IMG/VR virus record: IMGVR_UViG_3300040957_000105
Location: 1-42,175 of that record
Length of the DNA stretch: 42,175 nt
Direction: 5' to 3' (one strand)
From: a virus
Shown: positions 1,336 through 41,978 of the stretch, one piece after another
Position numbering within the stretch: the first letter of the stretch is position 1
Layout: every line of letters starts with the position of its first letter
Translations under genes and position numbers: made by a program
Notes under the pieces: model-generated
Told to the model about the DNA's origin: nothing
Seen by the model: the letters and a program-made list of their open reading frames with translations, nothing else
The model's database searches: none

Positions 1336-1938
1336 ATGGCGAAGCAAAAGGAGCAAGTAGTTGAATTGAAGCGGTTGGACATTCAGAAAATCACACTGAC
1401 GCTCGTCGGCGACAGCCCTCTCATCATGCACAAATGGTCTGAGAAGGCGAAGAAAGAAATGCTCGACAAGCAGATGAAGAAAGCCAAAACCGCGAAGGCA
1501 GCCAAGGACCCGGAGCAAGATTACAAGGATTCCTTGTACGAGTATCCGGGCGGCGGGTATGGTTTTCCCACCATCGGCATCAAGGCCGCAGCAGTCAATG
1601 CCGCCGCACAGTGCGACATGTTCAAGACTGATGCTCGTGCCACATTCCACATTGACGGTGAATTGGTGAAGATCGACGGTGAGCCGGAGCCCCGTGAAGA
1701 TATGGTTCGCGTCGGCATGGGCACCGCCGATATTCGCTATCGCGGCGAATTCAAAAATTGGAGCACCACCTTCACCATACGGTACAACGCCAGTGTCCTG
1801 TCCGCTGAGCAGATCGTGAATCTGTTTAATGCGGCTGGTTTCGGCGTTGGCATCGGCGAATGGCGTCCGCAAAAGAGCGGCTCCTACGGTCGTTTCCACG
1901 TGGCAACTGGTGCGGAAGCAAAAGCAGCCACAGCGTAA
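1336..1938 (+). CDS. Hypothetical phage protein with RAMP-like architecture, 200 aa
   Basis: ATG lies downstream of AAGGAG, at somewhat long spacing. The protein begins with a strand ending in a GDSPLI motif (residues 25-30), followed by a long Lys-rich helical stretch (34-65), a GFPTIGIKAAAVNAA segment (76-90), alternating strands, and a C-terminal glycine-rich motif, GIGEWRPQKSGSYGRF (172-187). The order of an SPLI/TPLL strand, an IKAA helix and a terminal G-x-G-x-x-R...G-x-G loop recalls RAMP proteins (Cas5/6/7-like ferredoxin folds). The product of 5129-6004 shows the same order. The RAMP relation is my inference from pattern, not an established assignment. Function unknown. Confidence 0.8.
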   Translation: MAKQKEQVVELKRLDIQKITLTLVGDSPLIMHKWSEKAKKEMLDKQMKKAKTAKAAKDPEQDYKDSLYEYPGGGYGFPTIGIKAAAVNAAAQCDMFKTDARATFHIDGELVKIDGEPEPREDMVRVGMGTADIRYRGEFKNWSTTFTIRYNASVLSAEQIVNLFNAAGFGVGIGEWRPQKSGSYGRFHVATGAEAKAATA

Positions 1939-1958: not shown

Positions 1959-1980
1959 CGGGGCGGTGAGAGCCGCCCCG
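1959..1980 (+). terminator. Strong hairpin after 1336-1938, possible terminator
   Basis: CGGGGCGG at 1959-1966 pairs perfectly with CCGCCCCG at 1973-1980 around a six-base loop. It lies 21 bases after the stop codon. No T-run follows, so it may stabilise the 3' end of the transcript or act as a weak or Rho-assisted stop. It immediately precedes the pentanucleotide array. Confidence 0.45.
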
Positions 1981-1992
1981 ATCAGACTGCAT

Positions 1993-2463
1993 GGCAGGCG
2001 AGGCTGGGTGGGGTTTGGTGTGGCATGGTGCGGTGCGGCTGGTTGAGGCTGGGCATGGCAAGGTTTGGCAGGCGGGGTGGGGCGAGGCGAGGCCCGGTCT
2101 GGCTGGGCACGGCAAGGTGCGGCTTGGCTTGGCTTGGCATGGCAGGCGGGGTTAGGCATGGTGTGGACGGGCGGGGTTTGGTTTGGCAAGGCGAGGTGCG
2201 GTGCGGCATGGCAGGCGTGGTGGGGTATGGCACGGTACGGCATGGCAAGATAGGGCTTGGCTTGGCATGGCAGGCAAGGTTAGGTGGGGTGAGGTCAGGT
2301 TGGGCTCGGCTTGGCATGGCTTGGCAAGGTTTGGCAGGCATGGCATGGTTCGGTGTGGTTAGGTTAGGTTGGCAGGGCAAGGCTGGGCAGGCAGGGTAAG
2401 GTCAGGCGTGTCAAGACAAGGTTAGGTCGGGTTTGGTTCGGCTTGGCAGGCAAGGTATGGAGG
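1993..2463 (+). repeat. Degenerate pentanucleotide (GGYNN) repeat array
   Basis: About 94 consecutive five-base units follow the consensus GG[C/T]NN, for example GGCAT, GGCTT, GGCAA, GGTTT, GGCAG and GGTGC, with only occasional phase slips. The plus strand is therefore almost free of CC and rich in G and T, and the GG-N3 spacing could support two-layer G-quadruplexes. Open frames on both strands here (plus: Gly/Ala/Trp/Arg-rich; minus: Pro/Ala/His/Cys-rich) are by-products of the five-base period and have no ribosome sites. The array separates two early genes and has a shorter inverted counterpart at 13815-13879. Confidence 0.9.
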
Positions 2464-2515: not shown

Positions 2516-3031
2516 ATGGTTTACAAGTTTAAGTCAGCAGCACAGTTGTCGCATCTCGATGCTCAAGCTTGCGGTAAGAGGCTTGAACAAATCGAAAAGA
2601 AGTCCGGGGCAATTACTCCGGTAGCGGTGGTGAACGATGCACGCAGCAAAGCTTCACCATTACATGACGCCTTCACTTGGGACGACAAGGAAGCGGCGGA
2701 AGCCCATCGGTTGAACGAGGCCCGGTATTTGCTTCGTAACATCGTTGTGGTCACGAGCGAACCGGAAGATAAAGAACCCACCGTTATCCGGGCCTTCATT
2801 TCGGTACCAAACGCAGCATCAGACGACGTGGACGTGGAGGAGCCAACTAAGGGCTCGTCTTACATCAACGTTACGGATGCACTGAGCGACCCCAAGCTGC
2901 GGGCCGTGGTGCTCAAGAGGGCGTATGACGAACTTCTTGCATGGAAGTGTCGGTACGAGGCCCTTGAAGAGTTCGCCGGAGTTCGCAAGGCAATCGCTTC
3001 GGTGAAATTCAAGGCAAAGGCAGCGGCGTAG
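2516..3031 (+). CDS. Conserved phage protein of unknown function, 171 aa
   Basis: ATG is preceded by TCAGGAGGAACTT, a very strong ribosome site. The sequence matches a recurring phage pattern: an N-terminal helix, a VVNDARSKASPLHDAFTWDD segment (about residues 38-57), an EAHRLNEARYLLR helix, an RAFISVP strand, then C-terminal helices with a KRAYDELLAWKCRYEAL stretch. I recognise this arrangement from other temperate phages, where it is annotated only as hypothetical. It lies alone between the repeat array and a leader hairpin. The role is likely early and is not known. Confidence 0.8.
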   Translation: MVYKFKSAAQLSHLDAQACGKRLEQIEKKSGAITPVAVVNDARSKASPLHDAFTWDDKEAAEAHRLNEARYLLRNIVVVTSEPEDKEPTVIRAFISVPNAASDDVDVEEPTKGSSYINVTDALSDPKLRAVVLKRAYDELLAWKCRYEALEEFAGVRKAIASVKFKAKAAA

Positions 3032-3604: not shown

Positions 3605-3812
3605 GAAACATCACGTCTCACTCACAACAACACAAGGGTTGGTTGCCCTAAGCATTTATCAAGTTGAATCGATACTCTTGCGGCCTGATGGCGTCATCAT
3701 CATAGAAACCCGGACCTGCAAGACTCACGAATTGCTGCCGCCGAAAGGGGACCCGAAGGAGAGGTTTACCCGGTTGTGCAGTCTTGTGTACGGACAGGAA
3801 GACAATGGCTAA
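3597..3812 (+). CDS. Small hypothetical protein, 71 aa
   Basis: GTG start overlapping the previous gene by 8 bases; a GGAGG just upstream (within the previous gene) serves as ribosome site. The product is a short alpha/beta protein with two hydrophobic strands (LVALSIYQVESILL and GVIIIET) and a basic C-terminal part. No membrane segment or known motif is seen. It overlaps the DUF1376 gene downstream by 8 bases, so it belongs to the same translation-coupled unit. Function unknown. Confidence 0.7.
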   Translation: MAKKHHVSLTTTQGLVALSIYQVESILLRPDGVIIIETRTCKTHELLPPKGDPKERFTRLCSLVYGQEDNG

Positions 3813-4692
3813 GCAGAACAAACTGACTTGGGTGCCGCCGTATATGCCGCTCATCTGGCAAGACTGGATGAGTAGTGCCGACATCCGCAGTATGACCATG
3901 GCTCAGCGGGGCATCTACATCAGCATACTACTCCACCAATGGATTTACGACGGCGTCCCCCGCGACGCTTGGCAACTCTCAAAAGACATCAATGCGAAAT
4001 ATGACACCGTCAAACGCTTCCTCCAAACTTACCCCCATTTGTTTGTCTGTCGGGAGTGTGGTGGGAGTTGGACGGGAGCAGTGGGGGAGTGCTGCGGGAG
4101 TAGTGGGGGAGTAGTGGTGGAGAACATTAAACTCAGAAATCTCAGAAAAGAAGCGATTTCCGACACTCCCCTCGGGACAAATAAAACAAAAGCAACTGAA
4201 GTTAAGGTAATACAACAGCAGCAAAAGCAGCCGTCGCAGGGTAAGAGGCGGAATGATGCTTTTTCTGAGGGAAGAGAGAGGGTTGTCCTCAGTGTAGGTG
4301 GGGTTACTACTCGCGACGCCGACGCCCCGGCCCCGATCAAGGAAGAGTTGATCGCCGGGTACACACGGGCCGAACTTGAGGCCCGCCGTGACCTTCATCT
4401 CGCAGCCGGATTTGGCTATCACTTCGATGAGGTTACTCGCGATCCGCAGTGCATCTATCGCGAGGCGTTCATCGAGAAAACCAACTTCATGACGAGCCCT
4501 GTGCCGAAAAAGAAAAAGTCAACCGAAGGCGGCAGCCGTGCGGATTCAGAGTACCGGGACCTGACAAAATACTCCGCTTTCGATTGTTGTGATTGTCATA
4601 CCCCTCTGCCCATAGGCGACTGGCCTCACCCCCGATGTCAGGCGTGTATTGACAGATGTAATCAGGAGGCCGCAAATGAGACTAACAATTGA
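3805..4692 (+). CDS. DUF1376-type phage replication protein, 295 aa
   Basis: ATG at 3805 follows ACAGGAAGAC and is preferred over an in-frame TTG 21 bases upstream. Residues 8-75 match DUF1376: a WVPPYMPLIWQDWMSS opening, MTMAQRGIYISILLHQWI, then a PRDAWQLSKDI helix and a winged-helix-like region. Proteins of this family sit where phages encode replication-initiation or helicase-loading factors. CREC and CC within residues 82-97 and a terminal CCDC...CQAC pattern (from about residue 260) suggest two added zinc sites. The middle is Lys/Gln-rich linker. No helicase or DnaC-type ATPase follows, so host enzymes are presumably recruited. Confidence 0.85.
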   Translation: MAKQNKLTWVPPYMPLIWQDWMSSADIRSMTMAQRGIYISILLHQWIYDGVPRDAWQLSKDINAKYDTVKRFLQTYPHLFVCRECGGSWTGAVGECCGSSGGVVVENIKLRNLRKEAISDTPLGTNKTKATEVKVIQQQQKQPSQGKRRNDAFSEGRERVVLSVGGVTTRDADAPAPIKEELIAGYTRAELEARRDLHLAAGFGYHFDEVTRDPQCIYREAFIEKTNFMTSPVPKKKKSTEGGSRADSEYRDLTKYSAFDCCDCHTPLPIGDWPHPRCQACIDRCNQEAANETNN

Positions 4693-5128: not shown

Positions 5129-6004
5129 ATGGCAAAAGTCGTAGCAGCAAAAGCAGCATTACCGAGTGAGGTGAAGAAGTACAGCGTGGAAGTTGCATTC
5201 CTCACCCCACTCCTCGGCACAGCACCGGAGAACCCGGCACTGTATGGCGATTTTATCATCGGCAAAGCCCTCGACGCGAGGTTGAAGAAGGCCAAGACCG
5301 AGGAAGACAAAGAAGCGGTTGAGCAAATCCGCAAGGCAATGTTGGACCGGGAAATCAGTATGTTGCCCGGCAACGCCAACAGCGAACTGCTCGAATCGCA
5401 GGAGAAATCCGTGCAGGATGTTCTCAAGGAAGCGGCTGAGGAAGGTGCGGAAGTCGTGAAGGGCCGCACGGTATTTCGTCGCCTCAAAGGTCAAGGCGGT
5501 GGTCCCGGCATGCTTGGTTATCAATGGCGTGGTTATCTCAAGGAAGCTGCGGTCACGCACAGCGACATTCCGCAGCCGGAATCGAAGATCGACAAGTTTT
5601 GCTGGATCGGCGAAATCGGCATCCCGATTCTTCGCAACGGCAAACCGTTACGGGATGTTGACGGCGAATTCTCACGCCCGCTTCGCACCAAAGATCAGCG
5701 GACTGGCGTATCCCGCGTCTGCATCGCAACCAGCGAATTTATCAATCCGTTCCCGGTTACCGGATGTAAGTTCACGGTGTTTGTCATGCCGAAGGGATTC
5801 TCGACGGCGTACTCTGGCGGGAAGTTTTCCGCCGACGACGTGAAGCATTGGCTCGAAGCTGGAGCATTCAACGGAACCGGGCAATTTCGCAGCGGCGGGC
5901 ACGGCTGCTTCAAAATCGTTTCCTTCGTTGAGGAAGATGTCGATTGGAAAGATGCGTTGAAGGCACGCTTGAAGATGCTCGAAGACGGCGTGCAGTTGTA
6001 CTAA
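5129..6004 (+). CDS. Phage protein distantly paralogous to 1336-1938, RAMP-like architecture, 291 aa
   Basis: ATG at 5129 follows AAGAGG. The layout parallels the 1336-1938 product: a first strand with FLTPLLG (24-30), a long charged helical insert (48-110), GYQWRGYLKEAAVTH (130-144), a two-strand segment with PILRNGKPLRD, then strands with RVCIATSEFINPF and KFTVFVMP. It closes with SADDVKHWLEAGAFNGTGQFRSGGHGCFKIV (234-264), close in spacing to SAEQIVNLFNAAGFGVGIGEWR...SGSYGRF in its partner. The terminal glycine-rich loop and TPLL strand are RAMP-like; the family call is inference. Last gene of the early block. Confidence 0.8.
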   Translation: MAKVVAAKAALPSEVKKYSVEVAFLTPLLGTAPENPALYGDFIIGKALDARLKKAKTEEDKEAVEQIRKAMLDREISMLPGNANSELLESQEKSVQDVLKEAAEEGAEVVKGRTVFRRLKGQGGGPGMLGYQWRGYLKEAAVTHSDIPQPESKIDKFCWIGEIGIPILRNGKPLRDVDGEFSRPLRTKDQRTGVSRVCIATSEFINPFPVTGCKFTVFVMPKGFSTAYSGGKFSADDVKHWLEAGAFNGTGQFRSGGHGCFKIVSFVEEDVDWKDALKARLKMLEDGVQLY

Positions 6005-13798: not shown

Positions 13799-13814
13799 TC
13801 CCCGCCCCCAGTTT

Positions 13815-13879
13815 GCCATACCGTGCCCGGCCTTACCACACCTCGCCGTGCCCTACCGCACCATACCATGCCATGCCCA
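13815..13879 (-). repeat. Second pentanucleotide array, inverted relative to the first
   Basis: Thirteen five-base units with plus-strand consensus [G/A]CCNN (GCCAT, ACCGT, GCCTT, ACCAC, GCCGT and similar) fill the gap after the head morphogenesis gene. Read on the minus strand this is GG[C/T] preceded by two free bases, the same consensus as 1993-2463 in opposite orientation. The gap contains little else apart from an AT-rich run before the protease gene start at 13929. Confidence 0.85.
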
Positions 13880-13928
13880 ATTACCCCTCAATTATACCAC
13901 AACTTTCCGACTCTTTATATGAGACACC

Positions 13929-26325: not shown

Positions 26326-29300
26326 TTCCGACCAAACACAGCCAACTCGATTGAACGGTATCCGCCTCAACGAAGCGGTACTCGGCAGAACCTTGCCTAT
26401 AGTGATTGGTCAACACCGTCTTGGCTGGTTGTTGGGCTGGTACGGTGACTTCGAATCGCAGCAGGTTCAGCAGGGCGGCGGCGGATCAGGTCTCGGCAAG
26501 GGTGGATCGACGGAATGGATTTACTACTCCTCTGTGCTGGGCTTCGTTTGCATGGGTCCGTGCTCCAACTTCCTCAGCGTATATGGCGTCGGCGGCACGG
26601 GCAAATACGAAGTCGATACGTACTCCGAAACATACACGATCCCGGCCTCTCCGGCATACCCGACATACACCCCGACCTACGCTGCGGACTATGCGGCAGA
26701 TGCGGGTGCTGGGGTCATCACGCCCTACAGTATCACGGTCAACGATTACGGGTCCCCAAGCCCCGTCACCCTAACGGGCAACTACATGTTGCCGAAGCAG
26801 CCAAATCCGCCGACGAATCCGACCCCGCCTCCGGGCACTTATACGCCTCCGCAGGCAGCAGCCGCAGCGGGCACATGCAACACCTCAGGCACCACGGTCA
26901 CGTGGGTCAGTGGTACGAAATTCTCGGCTGTATTGATCGGTAAGCCGATTGTCATCAACTCCGTGACCTACACGGTCGCCACATGCCCGTCAACCACGGA
27001 ACTCACCATCACAGTGAGTGCGGGCACCCAGACTGGTGTTGCGTTCTACACGGTCGGCTACTACGTTTTCAATTCCGGGGACGCGGGCGACACCGTTACG
27101 ATTACATACTCGGCTTACCGCTACCAGATCATCGACGAGGAGCTTGCCGATGTGCCGCTCTCAGGTCCGTATGTCGTTACAGTTGAGAACCAATCCGTCT
27201 GGAAGTCCAACGTGAGTGTCGTGTATTACCCGGCTGGTAATGCTTTGACTGCCGTCAGCGGTTCACCCGGTCCCGGACAGTACAACCCCAACGGCGGGAA
27301 TTACACATTCAATGCCGCACAGGCCGGGCAAGGCATCGCTATTCAGTACGTCTACACCGACTCCAATACCTCGACCAATGCCCCAAATACTTTGTCGCTC
27401 ACGTTCCAAGGCGGAGGGCTGGGTCAGCCCCCGTGGGCTTATTTGTCATCCAACGCACCGAGCTTTGCTCTGGGCTACAGCGAGGTTTGCTACGTTGCGT
27501 CGCAGGGCATGTATCTCGGCTACACGAACATGCTGCCGCAGTTGAACTTCGAAATTGCGGGTGCTTACCAATTCGGAAATGGCATCGTGGACGCCAACTG
27601 TGCGATTGCCATGTACAACCTCATGTGCAATCCGATCTACAAGCTGAATTTCCCCATCGAATATCTCCACGAATCGTTGCTGGGCACTTATCAAATCACG
27701 GGAAGCGTAACAAGCGGGACATTTGTGCCGTTTGAACAGGTCACACAGGGCACCACAGGGGCCATCACCACAATCTACAACACTGCCCCCACAGGCAGCA
27801 ACCCGATGATCGTCATCGGAGTTATCAGCGGCATCCCGGACGCCACGCATACTTGGGTCGGAGCGGATTCGGGTGCGGTGTACACACCTACCGCCAAACC
27901 CGCATGGACAACGGCTCCGAGCGGTGTTACTGGGTCGCAAAATTCTGCGGCAGCCTACTGGGCCTCGAATAATTGGTTCATCTCGGCAATTTTGGACAAC
28001 CAATCGTCACTTATGTCCATCTTTGGCGACTGGCTTGAGGCGGGTAACACCTTTGTAACTTGGGACGAAGGCTTGATGAAGTTCATCCCATTGGGAGATA
28101 CAACCGGAGTAGCCAATGGTTATATCTACCAGCCCCCGACCGGGAATAAGTCGGACATCACGCAGCCCGTGGTTGACCTCGACGACAACGACTTCCTATC
28201 TGACAAAAACAAAGCACCAATAGTCATCAACCAAGCTCCGTGGCAGTCACGTTGGAACCGAACAGGTGTACGTTACTCGCCGAGAGCCAACGACTACAAC
28301 GAAGATACTCTCGCCGTAGACGACATGGCGTCGATCAACCAATGGGGAGTAATGAAGCAGTCGGAGAAGGACTTTGAGTTCCTGACTACTTCCCAAGCGG
28401 CTTTGTTCAGTGCGTCGAACATGCTGCAAAGATTCCAAGCCATCTTCACGACCTATAAGTTCACGTTGAAGAACAATTTCTGCTGGTTGTCTCCGGGCGA
28501 CATCGTGACCATCACCGATGGTCTCCTCGGCACAGTAGGCTATATGTTTGGCCGGACCCCTGTCCGCATCATCAAGATGACAGACTCCTTCCCCGACAAG
28601 AAGGGCATCGAAATCGAGGCTGAGAATTTCCCGTGGTCGGTCGGCACAGCCCTCATCGGCAACCCGCAAGCCCAGATTCCGTCCAACACGAATACAGGCC
28701 AGAATGCCGATCCGGGCGACACGACCGCCATCATCATCGAAATGCCGAACCGTGGAGCACACTTCTCGGGCGACCAGATCAAGATTTTTTGCAACGGTAC
28801 TAACTCGGATTGGGGCGGCTGTAACGTGTTCTATTCGGACGATGGGACCACGTACAATTTCTACCAGCAGGTTAGTCAACCAGCCCGCATCGGGACCACG
28901 ACTGCGGATTTCCCATACTCGGCGACGAATCCCGACGTGACCAATTCGCTCACGGTCAATATGAGTCAGAGCGGGGCGGTGCTGAATTCCGTGTCCGATA
29001 CGTCATGGAACAATTACAGCACGCTCAGCGGCATCCTCAGTCAGCAGACGGGTGCATACTTGTCCCCGGTCAATCAGGCCAAGACAGGTTTCAACATTGG
29101 TACGAGCACGGTTGGGCCGGGCGGCAATGAAGGCCCACTCCCCGTTACGTTTGGCGGCAACCAAAGCAACGGTCTTTATACGCCGAACTGGGTCAACCCC
29201 GGCGATGTTACGGGCACCAGCGGTTTTGCCCATGTCACCGTAAGCCTGCACTCTTCTGGCGGATCGCAATTGCAGCAATTCTCGCTGTGGATGCCGAGTA

Positions 29301-41264: not shown

Positions 41265-41978
41265 CTACGCCCAAATTGCAGCGATCTTGTCCTGTAACGT
41301 TTGACCTTCCATCGGCCTCAAGTACCGCATCGTGCTTTCCATCGAACTGTGCCCGGCGATTGCCATCACTGTCCGCAGGTCGAGCCCGTTCCGTAACAGC
41401 GTCGTGATGCAGGTTCGACGGAACCCATGCAGTGACCAGTCCGCAGGATTGAGACCAGCCCTCGCCGCAACCAGTTTCGTGGTACGCAGCATGTGGAAGT
41501 CGATGTTGCCCAAGCGGGACGGAAAAACAAGGCTGCACTTGGGTGCACACTTGAGTTCAGACAACATCTCCGCCACGGGACCGGGCAGCGGTATCATCCT
41601 TTCCTCGGACGTTTTCGGTGTCCAGCCCGGCTTCGATTGGATGTGCACGCAGCCATCGTGAATGTCTGACCACTCAAGGTGCATGCACTCGGCCATGCGA
41701 CACCCGGTTACGAGCAGGAAGCGGTGGAAGATATACTGACGCCGATCACAGGCCGAGAAAAACTTCTCCAAATCGATAATGGAATAAATTTTCGGCATCG
41801 GAGAAACAAACTTGATGCTGGGGACCGGGACATCCATTCCAGCCCATTTGAAAAACGCACCAAGACGAACAGATTTATTGCTGAGCGTTCGATCACAGTT
41901 GCCCTGTGCCCGGCTCCATGCGAGGTATTCGAGGACACCGGACTTTGGGTCCGAAAGGAACGGTTCGGCTTCAAGCAA
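41265..41978 (-). CDS. int: Tyrosine-family integrase (start unresolved), at least 237 aa
   Basis: Catalyses phage integration and excision. Numbered from the TTG at 41978, the catalytic set is R94 (TGCRMAE), K122, H184 and R187 (LHGFRRT), H210 (AGHSS) and nucleophile Y219 (MRYL), all in the right order. The reading frame continues upstream without stop to 42089 and encodes a convincing N-terminal core-binding domain (SYLAEVAITRKPSTLREC), so the TTG start removes part of that domain. Upstream codons include no ATG, GTG or TTG before the TAA formed in the tRNA anticodon loop. It abuts the tRNA-fMet fragment, as tRNA-targeting integrases do. Confidence 0.9.
   Translation of the reverse strand: MLEAEPFLSDPKSGVLEYLAWSRAQGNCDRTLSNKSVRLGAFFKWAGMDVPVPSIKFVSPMPKIYSIIDLEKFFSACDRRQYIFHRFLLVTGCRMAECMHLEWSDIHDGCVHIQSKPGWTPKTSEERMIPLPGPVAEMLSELKCAPKCSLVFPSRLGNIDFHMLRTTKLVAARAGLNPADWSLHGFRRTCITTLLRNGLDLRTVMAIAGHSSMESTMRYLRPMEGQTLQDKIAAIWA

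What the first reader, a model, noticed from the sequence alone, without database searches (positions are those of the whole stretch)
1993..2463. A 471-base degenerate GGYNN pentanucleotide array inside the early region
About 94 five-base units keep a GG[C/T]NN period between two genes, giving extreme strand asymmetry and continuous GG-N3-GG spacing. Spacing is conserved while N positions vary, so the constraint appears to be on period and GG, not on a fixed word. That fits a structural or protein-binding role (G-quadruplex, filament loading, replication or packaging signal) better than recent tandem duplication. I do not know of a described phage element with this form.
Basis: seen in the sequence. 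Interest (0 to 1): 0.78.

Follow-up and report, generated by a model that had tools for sequence, protein, structure and literature searches.

The report
Guide-RNA array of a VIPR system
The odd five-base repeat is an array of overlapping guide RNAs beside a CRISPR-like RNA-binding gene: a new member of the VIPR systems, first reported in 2026, which phages appear to use to switch off genes of rival phages.

Summary
Window 1993-2463 is a GGYNN array (lag-5 identity 0.61 against 0.33 in shuffles). Its period is broken by 4-nt steps (GGCAGGC) into overlapping blocks, six of them 12-15 units long. The gene just upstream (1336-1938) matches the solved SUSP1 Vipr protein (profile E 7.6e-28); its predicted model resembles Csm3/Cas7 RAMPs. 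A preprint (PMC13142463) describes VIPR: vrRNAs of 9-16 YNNGG repeats whose NN pairs specify DNA with one skipped base. In the reference phage SUSP1, my Vipr profile and the GGYNN pattern recover the published layout. The array accompanies Vipr in phages of Mycobacterium, Gordonia, a cyanobacterium, Rhizobium and many metagenomes. Added here: block lengths of 5n+4 across relatives; a solitary 13-unit vrRNA on the opposite strand at 13813-13877 behind an extended -10 box; a possible second RAMP gene (5129-6004); and two in-frame target candidates for a Rhizobium relative, one in a portal gene. Targets of the window's own guides were not found.

The parts
1336..1938 (+). vipr gene (RAMP protein, 200 aa; PHROG 4652)
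   Evidence: Profile hit to PDB 36pp 'SUSP1 Vipr protein' E 7.6e-28; AlphaFold2 model pLDDT 93.9 matching Csm3/Cas7 subunits, E down to 4e-6
1960..1979 (+). Hairpin GGGGCGG-TGAGAG-CCGCCCC between vipr and the array; role unknown, not seen as a terminator
   Evidence: Read from the sequence; terminator scan negative
1993..2463 (+). Staggered vrRNA array, GGYNN period with 4-nt phase steps at GGCAGGC
1997..2071 (+). vrRNA block g1, 15 units (one imperfect)
2071..2145 (+). vrRNA block g2, 15 perfect units
2145..2214 (+). vrRNA block g3, 14 units (one imperfect)
2214..2273 (+). vrRNA block g4, 12 units (one imperfect)
2273..2337 (+). vrRNA block g5, 13 perfect units
2337..2390 (+). Two short runs (7 and 4 units) separated by a 4-nt step; possibly one decayed vrRNA
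2390..2449 (+). Last vrRNA block, read by eye as 12 units with two imperfect (GTCAA GACAA)
2516..3031 (+). Probable vipr accessory gene (vap; PHROG 15946), 171 aa
   Evidence: Conserved neighbour in relatives; matches inside the same ORF as vipr in Mycobacterium phage Gorge; model pLDDT 90.5 without PDB fold match
5129..6004 (+). Possible second RAMP-like protein, 291 aa
   Evidence: hhalign of its 3-sequence alignment against the Vipr profile: E 5.9e-6, probability 69%, aligned over its length including the C-terminal glycine-rich segment
13813..13877 (-). Solitary vrRNA, 13 perfect GGYNN units, in the late region, opposite to the flanking genes
13891..13899 (-). Extended -10 box TGGTATAAT, 13 bases before the first unit of the solitary vrRNA
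   Evidence: Read from the sequence; no -35 box, so the consensus scan did not report it

Best explanation
The array encodes a run of overlapping guide RNAs (vrRNAs) of a phage-borne VIPR system. Shown here: a RAMP gene homologous to the solved SUSP1 Vipr lies directly upstream; the array follows the published GGY/NN grammar in blocks of 12-15 units; the arrangement recurs in dozens of phages. Inferred from the published work on SUSP1 and P. fulva VIPR: the + strand transcript binds Vipr subunits, which hold the GGY bases and leave each NN pair free to pair with DNA, one target base being skipped per unit. Each block then directs the complex to a gene of a competing phage, prophage or satellite and represses its transcription. 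The gene at 2516-3031 is probably the accessory factor (vap). The 4-nt step GGCAGGC probably marks where one vrRNA ends and the next starts in a new register (inference; the paper mentions 'staggered arrays with overlapping vrRNAs').
For: Profile of gene 1336-1938 hits SUSP1 Vipr, E 7.6e-28; model matches Csm3/Cas7 RAMPs. Positive control: the same profile (E 1.6e-31) and pattern recover SUSP1's Vipr with GGYNN tracts on both sides of it, as published. 53 of 80 relatives have the array beside vipr on the same strand; 84 of 120 loci found by DNA pattern alone hold a Vipr homologue. Block lengths fall on 5n+4. Blocks hold 12-15 units, within the published 9-16. A guide of the Rhizobium relative, read with a 1-nt skip, has one hit in 298 Rhizobiaceae genomes: 20/22, in frame, skip at the wobble base, in a portal-like phage gene (about 0.3 chance hits expected). 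Guides against their own loci show a small excess for a 1-nt skip only (z 0.113 +/- 0.040).
Against: No RNA data. No target found for the window's own guides. The structured 3' tail of SUSP1 vrRNAs was not identified here. The vap assignment rests on neighbourhood only. The VIPR source is a preprint and its supplement could not be read.
Confidence: 0.95

Rival explanations
1. A DNA-level element: G-quadruplex-prone tract, replication origin or packaging signal bound as DNA.
For: Very G-rich strand with GG every five bases; early-region position.
Against: Does not explain the 5n+4 block grammar, the tie to a RAMP gene, the variable NN, or a second copy on the opposite strand in the late region. 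GG-N3-GG gives only two-tier quadruplexes.
Confidence: 0.02
2. A coding repeat: the array encodes a low-complexity protein (ORF 2025-2399, or Pipp gene 43 as annotated).
For: An ORF of 124 aa is open through part of it, and Gordonia phage Pipp carries an annotated gene there.
Against: The 4-nt steps change the reading frame between blocks; open frames also exist on the other strand; Ecliptus and Cy-LDV1 have no annotated gene over the array.
Confidence: 0.01
3. A neutral microsatellite grown by slippage and decaying by mutation.
For: One near-identical relative (L145) carries a 9-nt insertion in the array, so slippage does occur.
Against: NN differs between neighbouring units while GGY is kept across relatives sharing only 40-60% Vipr identity; arrays keep their strand relative to vipr in the loci checked.
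Confidence: 0.02

Closest known systems
VIPR (Viral Interference Programmable Repeat), SUSP1 and P. fulva type II (PMC13142463)
   Same: Vipr RAMP beside GGY/NN repeats; about 9-16 repeats per vrRNA; phage-borne; small neighbouring gene.
   Different: Here the vrRNAs form one continuous staggered array with one-base overlaps rather than separate vrRNAs with a structured tail; plus a solitary opposite-strand vrRNA and a possible second RAMP. The type number could not be assigned without the supplement.
Class 1 CRISPR-Cas (type III-A Csm3 / Cas7 backbone with crRNA)
   Same: RAMP fold; modular guide array beside the RAMP gene.
   Different: No direct repeats separating contiguous spacers, and no cas genes recognised among the neighbours searched.

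Membership tests
VIPR | Vipr protein: single small RAMP with RRM core and G-loop, homologous to SUSP1 Vipr | tested here: met
VIPR | vrRNA tract of 9-16 YNNGG repeats beside vipr, GGY conserved and NN hypervariable | tested here: met
VIPR | Invariable structured 3' tail on each vrRNA (as in the SUSP1 clade) | tested here: inconclusive
   Blocks run into each other with a one-base overlap and no tail between them; the paper lists staggered arrays as a known architecture
VIPR | vap accessory gene in the locus | tested here: inconclusive
   Conserved neighbour, no fold match
VIPR | NN positions match DNA of rival elements under the 1-nt skip rule | tested here: inconclusive
   Candidates for a Rhizobium relative; none for the window's guides
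VIPR | vrRNAs transcribed and bound by Vipr; repression of the target | not testable with these tools
   Needs RNA sequencing and reporter assays
Class 1 CRISPR-Cas | Direct repeats with contiguous spacers and several cas genes | tested here: not met
   Only degenerate GGYNN units in the array; neighbouring proteins gave no Cas family in Pfam or PHROGs, nor three of them in NCBIfam

The most novel reading that the evidence does not exclude
Beyond a standard VIPR locus, this phage has a stand-alone vrRNA gene with its own promoter on the opposite strand of the late region, used in trans, and a second RAMP-like protein: a distributed or two-RAMP VIPR not mentioned in the main text of the preprint.
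Probability: 0.3. Interest if true: 0.6.

Novelty: new member of a known kind. Interest (0 to 1): 0.5.

Why it matters
VIPR is a newly described, possibly pre-CRISPR kind of RNA-guided DNA recognition. This case came out of raw sequence without a gene model, and its relatives spread from actinobacterial to cyanobacterial and rhizobial phages. Cultured phages carry it (Brocalys and Gorge on M. smegmatis, Pipp and Ecliptus on G. terrae), so it can be tested in laboratory strains. The 5n+4 block grammar gives a rule for cutting such arrays into guides. The portal-gene match suggests that guides may also be aimed at structural genes of rival prophages.

Tried and rejected
Rfam gave only chance matches. 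A paper search for pentanucleotide repeats in phages led to the Tweety gp54 repeat, a different, coding 12-bp repeat. Promoter and terminator scans of both array regions found nothing. Exact 1-nt-skip pattern scans of IMG/VR for window guides g3 and g2 and for the solitary vrRNA gave no hits. The apparent resemblance of g3 to the window's own gene 5129-6004 (19/26) and of the solitary vrRNA to the MuF-like gene (18/26) is not significant (shuffle P 0.04 and 0.18, uncorrected for six guides), so I do not claim it. A skip-rule test against 2 Mb of fetched loci was inconclusive. Homologue searches with the terminase, MuF-like and 5129-6004 genes in IMG/VR found almost nothing, so the host and the rival phages of this virus remain unknown.

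Full report
Observation. Window 1993-2463 holds a degenerate GGYNN array: lag-5 identity 0.609 against 0.328 +/- 0.019 in shuffles, and a longest exact run of 15 units against at most 5 in 1000 shuffles. The period is not continuous. At GGCAGGC the frame moves by 4 nt, so that the last G of one block is the first G of the next. The blocks are 1997-2071 (15 units), 2071-2145 (15), 2145-2214 (14), 2214-2273 (12) and 2273-2337 (13), then two short ones, then 2390-2449, which I read by eye as 12 units with two imperfect. A second array, 13 perfect units, lies on the minus strand at 13813-13877 between the MuF-like and prohead protease genes.

Relatives. The 200-aa gene just upstream found 80 loci in IMG/VR. 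53 of them carry GGYNN arrays, all on the strand of that gene. Conversely, the pure DNA pattern returned 120 loci, of which 84 hold a homologue of that gene by HMM. Arrays adjoin the gene in named phages: Gordonia phages Pipp and Ecliptus, Mycobacterium phages Brocalys and Gorge, and cyanophage Cy-LDV1. Across 209 distinct blocks, lengths pile up at 44, 49, 54, 59, 64, 69 and 74 nt, that is 5n+4 (168 of 209 by my tally of the table); 31 more are 5n+3, as expected when one boundary is missed.

Identity. A profile of the upstream protein hits PDB 36pp, 'SUSP1 Vipr protein', E 7.6e-28. Its AlphaFold2 model (pLDDT 93.9) matches Csm3/Cas7 RAMP subunits. A preprint (PMC13142463) describes VIPR: a Vipr RAMP with vrRNAs of 9-16 YNNGG repeats, in which NN pairs specify double-stranded DNA with one skipped base per unit, used against competing phages. 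It lists staggered arrays with overlapping vrRNAs among the architectures. As a positive control, my profile and the GGYNN pattern applied to SUSP1 recovered one Vipr (28492-29073 minus, E 1.6e-31) with GGYNN tracts on both sides, in agreement with the published one upstream and three downstream vrRNAs. The window array is therefore a vrRNA array.

Mechanism. Shown by sequence here: Vipr homology, array grammar, strand and co-occurrence. Guides differ between phages: only 17 of 468 decoded guides recur in more than one locus, mostly in near-identical contigs. Inferred from the published work: transcription, loading on Vipr, NN pairing with a 1-nt skip, and repression of rival phages. Support within this clade comes from the Rhizobium leucaenae relative (L219). 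One of its guides, decoded with a 1-nt skip and at most 2 mismatches, has a single hit in 298 Rhizobiaceae genomes: 20/22, in frame with the skip at the wobble position, inside what I read as a portal gene beside a prohead-protease-like gene. I estimate about 0.3 chance hits anywhere. A second guide has an 18/18 in-frame hit in an uncharacterised Rhizobium gene; about 0.02 exact hits were expected, but 4 hits at up to one mismatch against about 1.3 expected is weak. Guides against their own loci show a small excess for a 1-nt skip only (mean z 0.113 +/- 0.040). For the window's own guides no target was found.

Other parts. Gene 2516-3031 is a conserved neighbour. In Mycobacterium phage Gorge it and vipr match within one ORF. 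It is the probable vap, but its confident model has no fold match. Gene 5129-6004 aligns over its length with the Vipr profile (E 5.9e-6, probability 69%) and may be a second RAMP. The solitary minus-strand vrRNA follows an extended -10 box TGGTATAAT. None of 17 other VIPR records showed arrays on both strands at the 7-unit exact threshold; three had no match at that threshold, and the list of places was cut, so distance from vipr was not checked in all.

Verdict. The solitary opposite-strand vrRNA and the possible second RAMP are the parts I did not find in the main text of the preprint.

Noticed in passing
window 4051-4122: G-rich repeat with an 11-nt period (GGGAGTNGTGG-like) inside the DUF1376-like gene 3805-4692; unrelated to GGYNN, possibly an origin-type iteron.
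   Followed up: no
window 5129-6004: Possible second RAMP-like protein in the same early region.
   Followed up: partly
window 1960-1979: Strong hairpin between the vipr stop codon and the array; relatives such as L158 and L164 have much shorter gaps there, so it is probably not conserved.
   Followed up: no
L217 4191-5408 (Mycobacterium phage Gorge gp54): One 405-aa ORF matches both vipr and the neighbouring gene B, an apparent fusion.
   Followed up: partly
L213 5620-5889 (Gordonia phage Pipp gene 43): The annotated hypothetical gene lies over the vrRNA array and is probably not a gene.
   Followed up: partly
L148 7368 and L154 4571: Two phages with otherwise different arrays share one whole guide block that differs only near its 3' end, a sign of block-wise exchange.
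   Followed up: partly
window 41265-41978: Integrase-like reading frame (tyrosine recombinase by eye) near the right end; suggests a temperate phage.
   Followed up: no
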